In this document: positions 14,430-23,299 of the stretch, one piece after another
Layout of the letters: each line of letters opens with the position of its first letter
Numbering within the stretch: the first letter of the stretch is position 1
From: Methanofervidicoccus abyssi
GTDB taxonomy: Archaea > AGJL01 > Methanococci > Methanococcales > Methanococcaceae
NCBI RefSeq assembly: GCF_004310395.1
Contig: NZ_BFAX01000003.1
Location: 177,333-241,332, forward strand
Direction of reading: 5' to 3'
Length of the DNA: 64,000 nucleotides
Made by a program: the position numbers and the translations under genes
Notes under the pieces: generated by a model
Told to the model about the DNA's origin: nothing
The model's database searches: none
What the model saw: the letters and a program-made list of their open reading frames with translations, nothing else

Positions 14430-14828
14430 TTAAATATCAAATATCTTAATAGCCTTTAGGGGACATACCTTGACACAGTTTTTACATCCGATACACTCTT
14501 CTTCGTTAAATACTACGCTGTAGTCTTCATCTTGGTATATGGCCTTAACTGGACAGTGTACTATACAAGCCCCACAGTCGATACATCTCTCCTTATTTTT
14601 CTCTATTATCTTTGGAATATCTTCATATTCACCGTATTTTTTCAACAGATTTAGAGCTTCTTCAATTTGTTTCTCACTTCCACTTAACTCCAAGATCAGG
14701 AAACTCTCCTGAGGACTCATTTTAGCCATTAAGATATTTATCATGACCTTTGTCTCTAAGATCACCTTTGATATCACCGGTTTATCTATGTACTTCTCGT
14801 ATACCCAGTAGTATATCCTTTTTTTCAT
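14430..14828 (-). CDS. NIL-domain ferredoxin of the homocysteine-synthesis pair (MJ0099-like)
   Basis: A 132-residue protein. The N-terminal NIL domain (about 1-75) is followed by two [4Fe-4S] motifs at C82/85/88/92 and C112/115/118/122. This domain order with an upstream COG1900 protein matches the pair shown genetically in Methanosarcina (MA1821/MA1822) to form homocysteine from aspartate semialdehyde and a sulfur source, with the ferredoxin likely supplying electrons. I chose the ATG at 14828, which has GGTGA five bases upstream; the ATG four codons earlier lacks a site. It lies 13 bases after the stop of its partner. Confidence 0.85.
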   Translation of the reverse strand: MKKRIYYWVYEKYIDKPVISKVILETKVMINILMAKMSPQESFLILELSGSEKQIEEALNLLKKYGEYEDIPKIIEKNKERCIDCGACIVHCPVKAIYQDEDYSVVFNEEECIGCKNCVKVCPLKAIKIFDI

Positions 14829-14841
14829 AATTTTCACCATG

Positions 14842-16380
14842 TTAGAATTTCCTATTTCCCAACAACTTTGAGAGATCCTCTGCAGTTACAACCCCAACAA
14901 CTTTTCCACTCTTATCTATTACTGGTACTCCTGAGATATCGTATCTACTCATCTTCCTCGCTACAACATCTATTGGTTCATCGAGTGTGGAACTGATAAC
15001 ATGCTTCGTCATTATCTCACATATGGAGTTTATATTTTGAGCTACAGCTCTTGCAATGTCCCAGGATGTTACTATCCCTATCAACCTTCCCTCTTCATCA
15101 ACGATAGGTAGATGGTTTATATTCTTTTCAGTCAGTATCCTAGCAGCCTCCTCTATAGATATATTCTGTTTTGCCACAATTGGAGGTCTACTGAGAATAT
15201 CTCTTACCAACTTAACCTCTGCCTTCATAGGTTTACATGAACCTTTTCCTAAGGGAGCTACAGACTCCGAAAGCATGAACTCTCCATTTAGTATCCATTT
15301 TTTAAGTTCTTCTGCAACTTCCCGGGATTTTTTATAACTTGAAACAGAGGCTGTCTTAACAGTTTTCTCTACTAATCTTTTCAAATCACTATCGTATATC
15401 TCGATGGTAACTTCTCCCTTTCTGAGTTCCTCGTAATTTGTCCTTGCCACCACAGGTCTATCCCTTCTAGGCACTCCGTAATCTAAGACAGGTACCTCGA
15501 TATCTTCATCCTTTACAGCACAGGCTTTTGCAACTTCTTCATTTAACACGGGAATGGGAATACCTATCCCTATATACAGGGTACATCCGTAATTAGGTAT
15601 AGTAGCAGCTCTTAAAAATTTAGGACTCATCGTCTTTAAATCCCCTTTAACCATTAAAGTTCCAAAGGCCTTATCTGGGTCGTGCTGAGTACCTTCTCCT
15701 ATTACGTATCCAATACCCCCACCTAGGAATATCCTAGTACCTATACCAATAGTGTTGAAAGTTTTCTTCTCCCTGTTGTAGTCGTTTTGGAGAGGATTTA
15801 ACTGCCCAGCTCCCGAGTAGTTTATATTGGAATACTCTGGAAGTAAGGTGCCCATATAGGTATATATTTTCTCTTCTCTACTGTTTGTAGCTGCGGCGTA
15901 GGTTTGATAACAGTTTCTTGGATTTACTAGTATAGCCTGATTTAAATCATCCAACGTTATAGTTGTTGACACCTTCTTTCTTGGATAGCAGTCAGTTGTA
16001 TATCCTTCTGCAACGAGTTTTACCTCTTTCCCTGCTACAAGATCTTCTATAACATGGGCTCCACCGTAGTTGATATCTATATCGTCATCGGAGTTTGGCT
16101 GTGCAGCACCTAAGTAGGCATCAACTGCTGCTAGTCCAGAGTAGGCTTCCACTCCATTTAGGTATGTCTTCATCATCTTTATTGGAGGATCTGCATGGCC
16201 AAAGTTTAGAAACACTCCACTGGAACACATGGCTCCAAAGGTACCAGTTGTGACGACATCTACTTCCTTTACTGCACCTTCAGGTCCCATCTCTTCTACA
16301 ACTTCTATCATCTCTTCAGCTGTTAATACTACAGCATCTCCTTTTTTTATCTTCTCATTAATCTCTCTAATGGTTTTCAT
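14842..16380 (-). CDS. L-aspartate semialdehyde sulfurtransferase, homocysteine synthesis (MJ0100-like), with CBS pair
   Basis: A 512-residue protein. The HcyBio domain (COG1900/DUF39) fills about 1-375, with candidate persulfide-bearing cysteines C52 (in GAMCSSG) and C131 (in YTTDCYPRKK). Two CBS modules fill about 390-510 (NHLPIVDEEGRLIGIV, SGVPVIDKSGKVVGVV). The related CBS pair of MJ0100 has been crystallised with SAM and methylthioadenosine, so feedback by SAM is plausible. The enzyme makes homocysteine for methionine synthesis in methanogens lacking the classical pathway. A CATGGT/ACCATG inverted repeat about 120 bases upstream is a possible operator. Confidence 0.88.
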   Translation of the reverse strand: MKTIREINEKIKKGDAVVLTAEEMIEVVEEMGPEGAVKEVDVVTTGTFGAMCSSGVFLNFGHADPPIKMMKTYLNGVEAYSGLAAVDAYLGAAQPNSDDDIDINYGGAHVIEDLVAGKEVKLVAEGYTTDCYPRKKVSTTITLDDLNQAILVNPRNCYQTYAAATNSREEKIYTYMGTLLPEYSNINYSGAGQLNPLQNDYNREKKTFNTIGIGTRIFLGGGIGYVIGEGTQHDPDKAFGTLMVKGDLKTMSPKFLRAATIPNYGCTLYIGIGIPIPVLNEEVAKACAVKDEDIEVPVLDYGVPRRDRPVVARTNYEELRKGEVTIEIYDSDLKRLVEKTVKTASVSSYKKSREVAEELKKWILNGEFMLSESVAPLGKGSCKPMKAEVKLVRDILSRPPIVAKQNISIEEAARILTEKNINHLPIVDEEGRLIGIVTSWDIARAVAQNINSICEIMTKHVISSTLDEPIDVVARKMSRYDISGVPVIDKSGKVVGVVTAEDLSKLLGNRKF

Positions 16381-19971: not shown

Positions 19972-20790
19972 TTATAAACCTAACATCTCAAGAGCTTTAG
20001 GTATTTGAAGTATCAACTCTTCAATCTGCGTCTTTGGAGTAGGATTTACTATCTCCCCAAGTAATCTGTTTATCTTACAACCTAATATACAGGCCTCCTC
20101 TGTTCTATAACCACAACTTATAAGGGACGATACAATTCCTGTAAGGGTATCTCCAGTACCTCCAATACACTCCATAGTTTCAATTCTTGGATTGTCTATT
20201 TTCTCTATTATATCCCCATCCTTCACTATATAATCAACTTCTCCTTTGACAACCATATACCTAGGCATCCTGTTTCTGTAGGCTCTCTTTATCAACTCTG
20301 GTACCTCTCTATCGTCTACCTCAGAGATAAATCCCCTAACGTAAGCTGGATGTGAAGCCTTCTCATCTGCCAAAAAAGCAAGTTCCCCTACATCTGGGAG
20401 AAAGAGGTGGAATTTATCCCCTATTCCAGCAGCCTTTGCAGCGTACATTCCTCCTGCATCAGCTACTATCTTTGGAGAAAAATCTATTTCCATTATCTCA
20501 GAAATCTTAGGTTTTATATAGTGTATTACCAACAGATCGTCATCAACATCCTTTAGATGTTTATATATCTTTAAACTTCCCTCTCCTGTGCCAATATCTC
20601 CTGCAGTTATAACCTCTGGTAATTCCTCTCCAAAGTACTCGTGAACTTTAATGGAAGCCCCTATTAGTGCTCCAGTACCCATGGATACAGGAAACTCCTT
20701 ATTACCTATAACTATTCTATTTTCTTTCAGTTTTCCCTTTCCCCTAACAAGATCCAACCCTTCTATCGGTAGAGTACCTGCTATTATCAT
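19972..20790 (-). CDS. Ribokinase-fold protein of the NAD(P)HX dehydratase/ADP-dependent kinase type
   Basis: A protein of about 272 residues. The family signature GGTGDTLTG (210-218 from the chosen ATG) provides the anion hole and catalytic Asp. FLPDVGELAFLADE resembles the conserved PxxGE segment of NAD(P)H-hydrate dehydratases. It lacks the epimerase half of the two-domain Nnr enzyme. It is the last gene of an operon with two YedE-like halves and a DUF3343-like protein, and overlaps the latter by four bases (ATGTGA junction) if GTG is used. I prefer the ATG at 20790. A substrate other than NAD(P)HX is possible given this context, and the real activity is unknown. Confidence 0.7.
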   Translation of the reverse strand: MIIAGTLPIEGLDLVRGKGKLKENRIVIGNKEFPVSMGTGALIGASIKVHEYFGEELPEVITAGDIGTGEGSLKIYKHLKDVDDDLLVIHYIKPKISEIMEIDFSPKIVADAGGMYAAKAAGIGDKFHLFLPDVGELAFLADEKASHPAYVRGFISEVDDREVPELIKRAYRNRMPRYMVVKGEVDYIVKDGDIIEKIDNPRIETMECIGGTGDTLTGIVSSLISCGYRTEEACILGCKINRLLGEIVNPTPKTQIEELILQIPKALEMLGL

Positions 20791-20792
20791 TT

Positions 20793-21374
20793 TCACATCT
20801 CCCCATATTTCTCTTTAACTATTCTCCTGGCCTCTTCAAAGGATTTATTCAATGTATAGGCACATAAGGTGTATCCTAATGCCTTTGGACTCTCCCCTTC
20901 AGGAATCTCCAGTATATTCCTTCCCTTCAATTTCATTGCAAGGTAGGGCACATCTGGACATCCTCCTCCAGATATATTTAGGATGTTTCCCTCTCTATCT
21001 ACAGTTATTTTCATATTTCCACATCTTACCATAATGGAACCATCATTGAATTCCTTTACCTTTGTAAGCTGAAGAGGCTTTAGAGAAGGATCACTTAGGG
21101 GGATGAACTTTAGAGGTTTTAAGTTATTTTTCTCCAGTTCCCTTTTTATCCCTATCTCCTCTACCATGTCGTACTCTAAAGCTAGATCACATCCTTCTCT
21201 GATCTCAGGAGGTGGGGCAACAACCTTTATAGAGTATCCCTTTAAGATCTCCTCCGCCTTTATAGCTTCTTTAACACTTTTAAAAATTATCAGCCCTCTA
21301 TGGCCCTTCTTTTCTTCTTCTTTCTTTTTAACCTTTTTAAAAATAGAGGAGATAAAAGAAGGGATAAATCCCAC
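20793..21374 (-). CDS. DUF3343-like protein with a cysteine-bearing C-terminal extension
   Basis: A 193-residue protein in three parts. A basic linker (1-26) is followed by a DUF3343-like domain (about 27-90), recognisable from LIIFKSVKEAIKAEEILK and PPPEIREGCDLAL with its single Cys. The C-terminal region (about 95-193) contains GGGCPDVPYLA and GYTLCAYTL. DUF3343 proteins are small putative sulfur/selenium carriers often found near YedE/YedF-type genes. The start is GTG with GGTGAT upstream. It sits between the YedE halves and the ribokinase-fold gene on the same strand. The function is inferred from context only. Confidence 0.6.
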   Translation of the reverse strand: MGFIPSFISSIFKKVKKKEEEKKGHRGLIIFKSVKEAIKAEEILKGYSIKVVAPPPEIREGCDLALEYDMVEEIGIKRELEKNNLKPLKFIPLSDPSLKPLQLTKVKEFNDGSIMVRCGNMKITVDREGNILNISGGGCPDVPYLAMKLKGRNILEIPEGESPKALGYTLCAYTLNKSFEEARRIVKEKYGEM

Positions 21375-21454
21375 GATATCACCATTATAACAATAAAAAT
21401 TATTTAAAATAAATTAATAAATTATTATAAAATTATAAAATTATAAAATAATAT

Positions 21455-21925
21455 TTATAACAACATCTTTATAACTGGTAGTACAAATAGATGGAACACT
21501 ACAGCACCAACTAGTAATCCGAGGATATAGGTCATTGCACTTTTATTTCCCTCGGCTGCCATAACATAGTTTCTAAAAGGACATCCACCCTGTATAACAG
21601 ATAAAAATCCTACTCCTATTCCACCAATTATTGTAACTAAGAAGTGTGCCATAAATCCAGCACTACCTGCAGCATCCCCCGGTATGGCAGTTAGGCCCTT
21701 CTCCAAGATCCATGGAAAGGAAGGGATCATACCTAATCCATAGAATATAATGTATCCTATTAAAGAACCTCCAAGAAATCCCAGGAGTCCTTTTATAAGC
21801 CATGTATCTCTAATTAGATAAAGATCTCTCATTCCCCCAATAAAACAGAGTGCAGCTCTCTGCCCAAGATATCCAATTAGGATACCGAATATAAGTGTCC
21901 CTATAGCAGGTAGATATTCCCCCAT
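21455..21925 (-). CDS. YeeE/YedE-family membrane protein, second half
   Basis: A 156-residue integral membrane protein with about four to five hydrophobic segments. It has the YeeE/YedE signature cysteine C115 in VIQGGCPFRNYV and another, C27, in AALCFIGGMRD. YeeE/YedE proteins pass thiosulfate or other sulfur species across the membrane by cysteine relay, and some members are linked to selenium metabolism. Here the usual single long chain is split into two adjacent genes. GGTGATATC precedes the ATG, and the other half ends eight bases upstream. Confidence 0.8.
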   Translation of the reverse strand: MGEYLPAIGTLIFGILIGYLGQRAALCFIGGMRDLYLIRDTWLIKGLLGFLGGSLIGYIIFYGLGMIPSFPWILEKGLTAIPGDAAGSAGFMAHFLVTIIGGIGVGFLSVIQGGCPFRNYVMAAEGNKSAMTYILGLLVGAVVFHLFVLPVIKMLL

Positions 21926-21933
21926 GATATCAC

Positions 21934-22401
21934 CTATGCTATTTTAAGATTCCTTTTTAGATACAGTTCACTTCCTATTACAACTCCGATGAACAATCCT
22001 AGAAGGCCGATTATACCAAATATATCTCCATAACTAGTTCTTAAACTCATTCTAATAGGACAGCCTCCCATTAAGAGGGCGAAATTTATCACAAGGAATC
22101 CAAGGATGAAACTAACCCCTAAGTTTTTGGTGGATCTAAGCTTAAAGTCTTTGTGGATAACAGCACCTATTAACGCCCCTAAAAATATACCTACCACAGT
22201 TAAAACAGGGAAAAATTTCGATACTGGAGCTAACCCCAATGTTGTACCTGCTATACTGTTCACTATCCAGTTTATCAAATCCCTTGTATGACATGCAATA
22301 CATAAACCGTAGGCTGGAGGAGGTGTAACTTTAAAAACTGCCTGCAGAATTGCTCCTGAGAGTCCTGCAAATAACCCAGCCTGTAGCGGTGATATCTTCA
22401 T
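21934..22401 (-). CDS. YeeE/YedE-family membrane protein, first half
   Basis: A 155-residue membrane protein and probable heterodimer partner of the preceding entry. It carries a GGCP motif of its own (MGGCPIRMSLR, C114) and a CxxC near the N-terminus (LCIACHTRD, C34 and C37). It is the first gene of the operon and is transcribed away from pstK across a 127-base AT-rich promoter region. Selenium rather than sulfur as the transported element is an inference from that neighbour. AGGTGGTAAT precedes the ATG. Confidence 0.8.
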   Translation of the reverse strand: MKISPLQAGLFAGLSGAILQAVFKVTPPPAYGLCIACHTRDLINWIVNSIAGTTLGLAPVSKFFPVLTVVGIFLGALIGAVIHKDFKLRSTKNLGVSFILGFLVINFALLMGGCPIRMSLRTSYGDIFGIIGLLGLFIGVVIGSELYLKRNLKIA

Positions 22402-22528
22402 ATTACCACCTCTAACCCAGTCTTTAGCGGTAATTATGTTATTCAGTTATATATAATTTTCTTAATAGAATTTTTAATATTCTAATTGCTATTAATATTC
22501 TTAATAAGTATATCTTAATGTGATAACT

Positions 22529-23299
22529 ATGCTGATAATACTTGTGGGCCTCCCATCTGTGGGGAAGAGTACCTTTGCAAAGAGACTTTCTAAGGAACTT
22601 TATCTCAGAGGTGTAGATAACATAGTAATAGGGAGTGATGTTATAAGAGAATGTTTTCCAGTGTGGAAGAGAGAATACGAGGAGTATATAAAGAACACAA
22701 CCTATCAATTTATAGACAGTGCCTTAAGAAAGTTCTACGTAATAGTAGATGATACTAACTATTATAACTCAAAGAGGAGAGATCTGATAAGTATTGCAAA
22801 GAGGAGGAACAAGGATTACATGATTATTTATTTAAGAGCACCACTGGATGTTATATTAGAGAGGAATATAAAGAGAGGGAAGAAAGTCCCAAATGAGCTG
22901 ATTTTAGAGATGTACAATAAATTTGATGAACCTGGAATGAAGTATGCATGGGATAGACCCGACATCGTAGTGGACACCCATCGGGAGATAAATTTTGATA
23001 AAATAGTCAATATTATTCTCGATAAAGGTGTTAAGAAGTCTAAAATAGAGAAAAATAGAAAAGAAGACAACTCTAAAAAACAGATATGGGATAAAGTAGA
23101 TAAGATAACCAGGGATGTTGTTGGGGAGTATATTAAAAAGGATGTTGTGAAGGGAAAAGATATTAGAGTGATTTTAAAACTTAGAAAGGAGTTTTTAAAA
23201 AATCTGAAGTCTAATATTTTAAATGATGAGAGGTGTTTGGAAAATATAAGATCTGATTTTAAAAGATTTTTAAATGAAAGACTGGATAACGATAAATAG
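22529..23299 (+). CDS. pstK: L-seryl-tRNA(Sec) kinase
   Basis: A 256-residue P-loop kinase with GLPSVGKS (7-14) and a DDTNYY segment. It has a C-terminal helical, basic region of the kind that binds tRNA-Sec. PSTK phosphorylates Ser-tRNA(Sec), and SepSecS then converts it to Sec-tRNA. Its presence shows that this organism reads some UGA codons as selenocysteine. I use the ATG at 22529, since GTGAT just before it looks like the ribosome binding site and known homologues begin MLIIL. It is divergent from the YedE-type operon. Confidence 0.9.
   Translation: MLIILVGLPSVGKSTFAKRLSKELYLRGVDNIVIGSDVIRECFPVWKREYEEYIKNTTYQFIDSALRKFYVIVDDTNYYNSKRRDLISIAKRRNKDYMIIYLRAPLDVILERNIKRGKKVPNELILEMYNKFDEPGMKYAWDRPDIVVDTHREINFDKIVNIILDKGVKKSKIEKNRKEDNSKKQIWDKVDKITRDVVGEYIKKDVVKGKDIRVILKLRKEFLKNLKSNILNDERCLENIRSDFKRFLNERLDNDK

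What the first reader, a model, noticed from the sequence alone, without database searches (positions are those of the whole stretch)
19972..23299. Split YedE transporter, DUF3343-like carrier and ribokinase-fold protein in an operon divergent from pstK
Two half-length YeeE/YedE membrane proteins, each with its own GGCP cysteine motif, are followed on the same strand by a DUF3343-like protein and a kinase-fold protein. pstK, dedicated to selenocysteine, is transcribed away from the same 127-base region. YeeE/YedE and DUF3343 families occur in bacterial selenium or sulfur neighbourhoods (established knowledge). A methanogen uptake and trafficking route for a selenium species that ends in Sec-tRNA is the inference. 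The kinase-fold protein has no known place in such a route, which makes this the best candidate for an undescribed system here.
Basis: partly seen in the sequence, partly recalled or inferred. Interest (0 to 1): 0.62.

Follow-up and report, generated by a model that had tools for sequence, protein, structure and literature searches.

The report
Selenium-uptake gene set with unnoticed kinase
This methanogen operon holds a two-part selenium-type transporter and a carrier protein that were already suspected of handling selenium, plus a kinase-like enzyme that turns out to travel with them in distant bacteria too, often beside the gene that activates selenium, so it is probably an overlooked part of how microbes take in and hand on selenium.

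Summary
On the minus strand lie two YedE halves, an extended DUF3343 protein and a ribokinase-fold protein, divergent from a bona fide pstK. The split archaeal YedE and the DUF3343 'Se carrier' idea were published in 2015, and yedE of Methanococcus maripaludis is induced about 40-fold without selenium (2024). The pstK link is weak: adjacency occurs in one small clade, and the operon is cleanly missing next to pstK in relatives. All 27 high-quality Methanococcales genomes have pstK; about 21 have the module.

What looks new is the kinase. It is present or absent together with YedE and DUF3343 across Methanococcales, even where the genes are scattered. In bacteria of several phyla the same extended DUF3343 (three invariant cysteines) directly precedes the kinase, often with a 4-base overlap, next to YedE and often TusA. 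In three bacterial groups selD is the neighbour or near neighbour. In Coriobacteriia, 25 of 26 kinase genomes carry a selenocysteine-type SelD. It is annotated NAD(P)H-hydrate dehydratase but fails that family's cut-offs.

Best reading: a mainly selenium uptake and hand-over module with an ATP-using enzyme of unknown substrate. Sulfur remains possible: Nostoc has the module without SelD.

The parts
21934..22401 (-). YedE1: first half-transporter (matches N-half of TIGR04112 and the C-half of TsuA); invariant cysteines C34, C37, C114 (GGCP)
21455..21925 (-). YedE2: second half-transporter (C-half of TIGR04112, N-half of TsuA); invariant cysteines C27 and C115 (GGCP)
20793..21374 (-). Extended DUF3343 (Se_S_carrier PF11823 plus a ~100-residue C-terminal domain with SGGGCPD); C62, C139, C171 invariant from archaea to bacteria
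19972..20790 (-). Ribokinase-fold enzyme (PF01256-like; GGTGD and DxxE motifs invariant), start ATG 2 bases after the DUF3343 stop; GTG at 20796 is an alternative start
22402..22528 (.). Divergent intergenic region between YedE1 and pstK
   Evidence: sequence only; no promoter mapping
22529..23299 (+). pstK, L-seryl-tRNA(Sec) kinase; neighbour, probably not part of the module

Best explanation
The operon encodes an uptake and hand-over module for a reduced or thiosulfate-like chalcogen compound, in Sec-using organisms chiefly a selenium compound. (1) YedE1 and YedE2 form one transporter that carries, split over two subunits, the cysteine ladder of the thiosulfate transporter TsuA: C114 of YedE1 is the entry cysteine; C115 and C27 of YedE2 are the second and the cytoplasmic one. 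The correspondence is shown by alignment; transport is inferred. (2) On the inner face the chalcogen is picked up by a cysteine carrier: TusA in bacteria, and the extended DUF3343 protein (C62, C139, C171) in both domains. Inferred. (3) The kinase-fold enzyme is made in tight coupling with the extended DUF3343 and probably acts on it or on a small molecule bound to it, using ATP (or ADP) to free, activate or trap the chalcogen before SelD makes selenophosphate. The coupling is shown; the reaction is a guess (about 0.3). The product feeds SelD and hence all selenium uses, not pstK in particular. The module is dispensable.
For: All-or-none co-occurrence of kinase, YedE and DUF3343 in 36 Methanococcales genomes (22 with all three, 13 with no complete gene of the set, 1 with YedE and DUF3343 only), holding within the Methanocaldococcus-like family where the genes are mostly scattered (of 9 genomes with YedE 8 have the kinase, of 5 without none; p=0.003). 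Bacterial kinase homologues have the same extended DUF3343 immediately upstream in 29 of 32 loci (two of the other three are at contig ends), with an ATGA overlap shared by archaea and bacteria, and a YedE-family gene beside most of them; TIGR04112 cut-off met in 25 of 31 genomes. Nostoc fuses YedE to DUF3343. selD lies next to the module in Peptoclostridium, Desulfobacterales L134 and an actinomycete L136, and 4-5 kb away in two Coriobacteriia. SelD is over cut-off in 26 of 31 kinase genomes; in Coriobacteriia 25 of 26 kinase genomes have a Sec-type SelD against about 88 of 174 others. TsuA cysteines C22, C91, C293 align with invariant cysteines (PMC11073785). yedE +5.3 log2 and TusAD +4.5 log2 without selenium in M. 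maripaludis (PMC11097638).
Against: Deleting the M. maripaludis yedE pair gave no clear loss of use of any tested selenium compound (PMC11097638). Two Nostoc genomes, two Omnitrophota and one Desulfobacterales MAG have the kinase without a SelD over cut-off, so the cargo need not be selenium. Several near-complete Sec-using Methanococcales lack the module. No co-occurrence test here was corrected for shared ancestry. Enzyme activity of the kinase and chalcogen binding by DUF3343 are untested.
Confidence: 0.55

Rival explanations
1. The module imports and hands on sulfur (thiosulfate or sulfane sulfur); its occurrence with selenium genes reflects shared anaerobic ecology.
For: Nearest solved relatives of YedE are the thiosulfate transporter TsuA. 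Module present in SelD-less Nostoc. yedE deletion without clear selenium phenotype (PMC11097638). Sulfur-incorporating homocysteine genes lie 4-6 kb away in the window.
Against: selD as neighbour or near neighbour in three bacterial groups; nearly all Coriobacteriia carriers have Sec-type SelD; yedE rises when selenium, not sulfur, is withdrawn (PMC11097638).
Confidence: 0.25
2. YedE exports excess selenium and the carrier and kinase belong to detoxification (export was suggested for YedE in PMC5322559).
For: The module is dispensable and repeatedly lost; Omnitrophota and Firmicutes versions have ArsP-like permease neighbours.
Against: yedE is induced on selenium depletion, the opposite of an exporter (PMC11097638). 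TsuA is an importer (PMC11073785).
Confidence: 0.08
3. The kinase is an ordinary NAD(P)H-hydrate repair enzyme caught in the operon.
For: PF01256 match over cut-off; closest fold is TM0922 NAD(P)H-hydrate dehydratase; annotated so in public records.
Against: 31 bits against a cut-off of 129.85 for TIGR00196, and the first 116 model positions do not align. Several carriers have a separate ~500-residue ORF that also matches weakly and is probably the real repair enzyme. The family is conserved with DUF3343 and YedE across phyla.
Confidence: 0.1
4. One reading: a selenium route dedicated to Sec-tRNA through pstK, with shared divergent regulation.
For: Divergent gene arrangement in G000, G028 and G031.
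Against: pstK is universal in the high-quality genomes and not next to the operon in other Methanococcales; clean loss of the operon beside an intact pstK in G025 and G032 and a kinase remnant in G026; pstK not selenium-regulated in M. maripaludis (PMC11097638).
Confidence: 0.05

Closest known systems
YedE family putative selenium transporter (TIGR04112; Lin et al. 2015, PMC5322559)
   Same: Same family; bacterial fused YedE has gene 1 as N-half and gene 2 as C-half; the split in archaea was noted in that paper
   Different: Each half reaches only about 70 of the 200 bits of the curated cut-off. The parts of Lin et al. read here do not name the kinase or the extended DUF3343 form
TsuA/YeeE thiosulfate transporter with TsuB/YeeD (PDB 6LEO, 8J4C, 8K1R; PMC11073785)
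   Same: Three relay cysteines have invariant equivalents; a TusA-like partner sits in bacterial versions of the module
   Different: Order of halves is swapped (YedE1 = TsuA C-half, YedE2 = TsuA N-half); two chains; no TusA gene in the archaeal operon; below the TsuA model cut-offs
DUF3343 / Se_S_carrier PF11823
   Same: N-terminal 64 residues
   Different: Extra C-terminal domain (SGGGCPD, C139, C171), with the kinase next to it in nearly all bacterial loci seen; Lin et al. found no selenium-specific subfamily
NAD(P)H-hydrate dehydratase NnrD (TIGR00196, PDB 2AX3/3RT7) and hydroxyethylthiazole kinase ThiM
   Same: Ribokinase fold, GTGD motif
   Different: Below family cut-offs; TM-score about 0.6 and 16% identity to TM0922; own conserved motifs (DAGGMY, PDxxE..FLAD..HPxY)

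Membership tests
TIGR04112 seleno_YedE | Score over the equivalog cut-off of 200 bits | tested here: not met
   Split halves score 69.2 and 70.2 bits; fused bacterial neighbours of the same module pass in 25 of 31 genomes
TIGR04112 seleno_YedE | Found in selenium-using organisms (SelD present) | tested here: met
   SelD in the window's genome with an in-frame TGA, and a match in all 36 genomes, 33 over cut-off; exceptions elsewhere: Nostoc
TsuA/YeeE thiosulfate transporter | Three relay cysteines C22, C91, C293 | tested here: met
   C27 and C115 of YedE2, C114 of YedE1
TsuA/YeeE thiosulfate transporter | Order of halves and score over TsuA cut-offs | tested here: not met
   Halves swapped; 25.0 and 21.8 bits at best against 400 and 645
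DUF3343 / Se_S_carrier PF11823 | Gathering score and conserved cysteine | tested here: met
   56.9 bits against 25; C62 invariant in 22 sequences from archaea and bacteria
NAD(P)H-hydrate dehydratase (TIGR00196) | Curated score and alignment over the whole model | tested here: not met
   31 bits against 129.85; model positions 117-251 of 277 only
NAD(P)H-hydrate dehydratase (TIGR00196) | ADP/ATP-dependent NAD(P)HX dehydration | not testable with these tools
   needs enzyme assay
Ribokinase superfamily | Fold, GxGD catalytic motif, (N/D)xxE metal motif | tested here: met
   AlphaFold2 pLDDT 88.4, top PDB matches all ribokinase-like; G212-D215 and D134, E137 invariant
PstK (TIGR03574) | Curated score | tested here: met
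   313 bits against 290.5

The most novel reading that the evidence does not exclude
The kinase and the extended DUF3343 protein form a two-protein enzyme, unrecognised so far, that takes a chalcogen from a YedE transporter and activates or releases it at the expense of ATP upstream of SelD; it would be the first biochemical step known between selenium entry and selenophosphate in archaea and bacteria.
Probability: 0.3. Interest if true: 0.85.

Novelty: new variant of a known kind. Interest (0 to 1): 0.6.

Why it matters
No specific high-affinity selenium transport system has been identified in prokaryotes (PMC13188914, 2026). The finding gives a defined set of genes with an enzyme in it, conserved from methanogens to clostridia, and shows that the one genetic test made so far, to go by the strain table of the paper, removed only the transporter pair and not the carrier and kinase. 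It also separates out a DUF3343 subfamily that tracks with selenium, which the 2015 study looked for and did not find. It flags a likely widespread mis-annotation (NAD(P)H-hydrate dehydratase).

Tried and rejected
Formate dehydrogenase as the common denominator: YedE lies beside a Sec-type FdhA in G002, but the window's genome and G028 have the module without FdhA, and G010, G014, G023 and G029 have FdhA without the module. Rejected.

Selenocysteine inside the kinase: three hits reported one in-frame TGA. In the two of these checked, the TGA is the ordinary stop codon. Rejected.

A solved relative of the extended DUF3343: none by sequence and no confident fold match.

Phylum-wide test for methanogens without pstK: the held phylum consists of the same 36 Methanococcales genomes, so it could not be done. 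The one scan of named genome contigs found no kinase in other archaea, but it also missed most of the Methanococcales, so its absence means little.

Literature: DUF3343 occurs in four papers of the library, two of which are about other subjects; I found no mention of the kinase with selenium genes. Subscription papers and preprints are not held.

Full report
WHAT IS THERE. The window carries a minus-strand operon of four genes: YedE1 (22401-21934), YedE2 (21925-21455), an extended DUF3343 protein (21374-20793) and a ribokinase-fold protein (20790-19972), divergent from pstK (22529-23299, plus strand). Domain searches confirm the names: the two halves match positions 5-135 and 184-310 of TIGR04112 seleno_YedE; DUF3343 is PF11823; the kinase is a weak PF01256 protein; pstK is over the TIGR03574 cut-off. 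The genome uses selenocysteine: its selD gene has an in-frame TGA. The window lies in the same genus as Methanothermococcus sp. SCGC AD-155-M21, since G031:C94 and that record's contig have the same length of 23,021 bases.

WHAT WAS KNOWN. Lin et al. 2015 (PMC5322559) linked YedE to SelD, noted that the gene is split in two in archaea, and proposed DUF3343 as a selenium carrier without finding a selenium-specific subfamily. Funkner et al. 2024 (PMC11097638) found yedE of M. maripaludis (MMJJ_13000) up 5.3 log2 without selenium, TusAD up 4.5 log2 and pstK unchanged; deletion of MMJJ_13000-10 had no clear effect on use of ten selenium compounds. To go by the gene order in Methanococcus-type genomes (TctA, an OB-fold gene, YedE1, YedE2, DUF3343, kinase), the deletion spared DUF3343 and kinase; this mapping is inferred from locus numbers.

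THE PSTK LINK. pstK is in all 27 high-quality genomes of the order, the module in about 21. Adjacency to pstK occurs only in G000, G028 and G031. In G025 and G032 the flanking glmU-like gene and pstK are both kept, about 76 bases apart, with the operon gone; G026 retains a 54-residue kinase remnant with stops. A pstK tree puts these losses in two different sub-clades. The module is therefore dispensable and its tie to pstK is local.

THE KINASE BELONGS TO THE MODULE. Across 36 genomes, 22 have all of kinase, YedE2 and DUF3343 (in one of them, G004, YedE2 and the kinase are decayed), 13 have no complete gene of the set, and one incomplete genome lacks only the kinase (p about 6e-9 uncorrected). 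In the Methanocaldococcus-like family the genes are mostly dispersed yet still co-occur. A scan of named genomes found 32 bacterial loci with the kinase in Desulfobacterales and another deltaproteobacterium, Nostoc, Actinomycetota/Coriobacteriia, Omnitrophota and Firmicutes. In 29 of these the extended DUF3343 lies immediately upstream; two of the other three are at contig ends. The ATGA overlap of DUF3343 stop and kinase start is the same in an archaeon and nine bacteria checked. In bacteria the order is usually yedE - tusA - DUF3343 - kinase. Desulfobacterales L134 has a split YedE like the archaea; Nostoc L135 has YedE and DUF3343 in one protein.

SELENIUM OR SULFUR. Next to the module lies a Sec-type selD in L134 and L136 and a selD in Peptoclostridium acidaminophilum, with two more selD genes 4-5 kb away on the same contig. 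26 of 31 bacterial carriers have SelD over the cut-off. In 200 Coriobacteriia, 25 of 26 carriers have SelD, all of the selenocysteine type, against 126 of 174 with any SelD and about 88 of 174 with the Sec type among non-carriers (p=0.004 and 2e-6; the Sec-type count was made by eye on a listing cut at its end, and neither test corrects for ancestry). The Nostoc cases, with a TIGR04112-passing YedE and no SelD, show that selenium use through SelD is not a strict condition.

ANATOMY. The TsuA relay cysteines C22, C91 and C293 align with C27 and C115 of YedE2 and C114 of YedE1, all invariant; thus only the pair holds the full ladder described for TsuA (PMC11073785). The halves are in the opposite order to TsuA, whereas bacterial fused YedE is collinear with the archaeal pair. 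The extended DUF3343 has C62, C139 and C171 invariant from archaea to bacteria; its model (pLDDT 80.5) has no confident PDB match. The kinase model (pLDDT 88.4) is ribokinase-like, nearest TM0922 at TM 0.6 and 16% identity, with GGTGD, DxxE, DAGGMY and HPxY invariant.

HOW IT MOST LIKELY WORKS. Shown: gene linkage, co-inheritance, conserved cysteines, conserved kinase motifs. Inferred: import through the split YedE, pick-up by TusA and the extended DUF3343, and an ATP-dependent step by the kinase on the carrier or a carrier-bound small molecule, upstream of SelD. The identity of the kinase substrate is a guess.

VERDICT. Observation confirmed; interpretation partly supported. The transporter and carrier are new members of a published prediction; the kinase and the extended DUF3343 form make it a new variant of that kind.

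Noticed in passing
L151, L152, L158: In two Omnitrophota and a Firmicutes MAG the extended DUF3343 and kinase sit between an ArsP-like permease and a different YeeE/YedE-type transporter, next to a radical SAM protein resembling the (seleno)protein TrsS (below its cut-off).
   Followed up: partly
L150:633-2591: Kinase and YeeE-like transporter in one 652-residue open frame in a low-coverage Omnitrophota MAG; real fusion or assembly error.
   Followed up: partly
L135:4364-5995: Nostoc sp. FACHB-152: complete YedE fused to extended DUF3343, followed by the kinase, in a genome without SelD over the cut-off.
   Followed up: partly
L095, L096, L097, L100: In Methanocaldococcus-type genomes YedE and DUF3343 have neighbours of the BcrAD activase, HGD-D and 2-thiouracil-desulfurase-like families; related activase and dehydratase genes are listed beside bacterial selenium genes in Lin et al. 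2015.
   Followed up: partly
window 14430-16380: Homocysteine biosynthesis (HcyBio) gene and a NIL/ferredoxin gene, a sulfur-incorporation pair, lie 4-6 kb from the operon.
   Followed up: no
   Followed up: no
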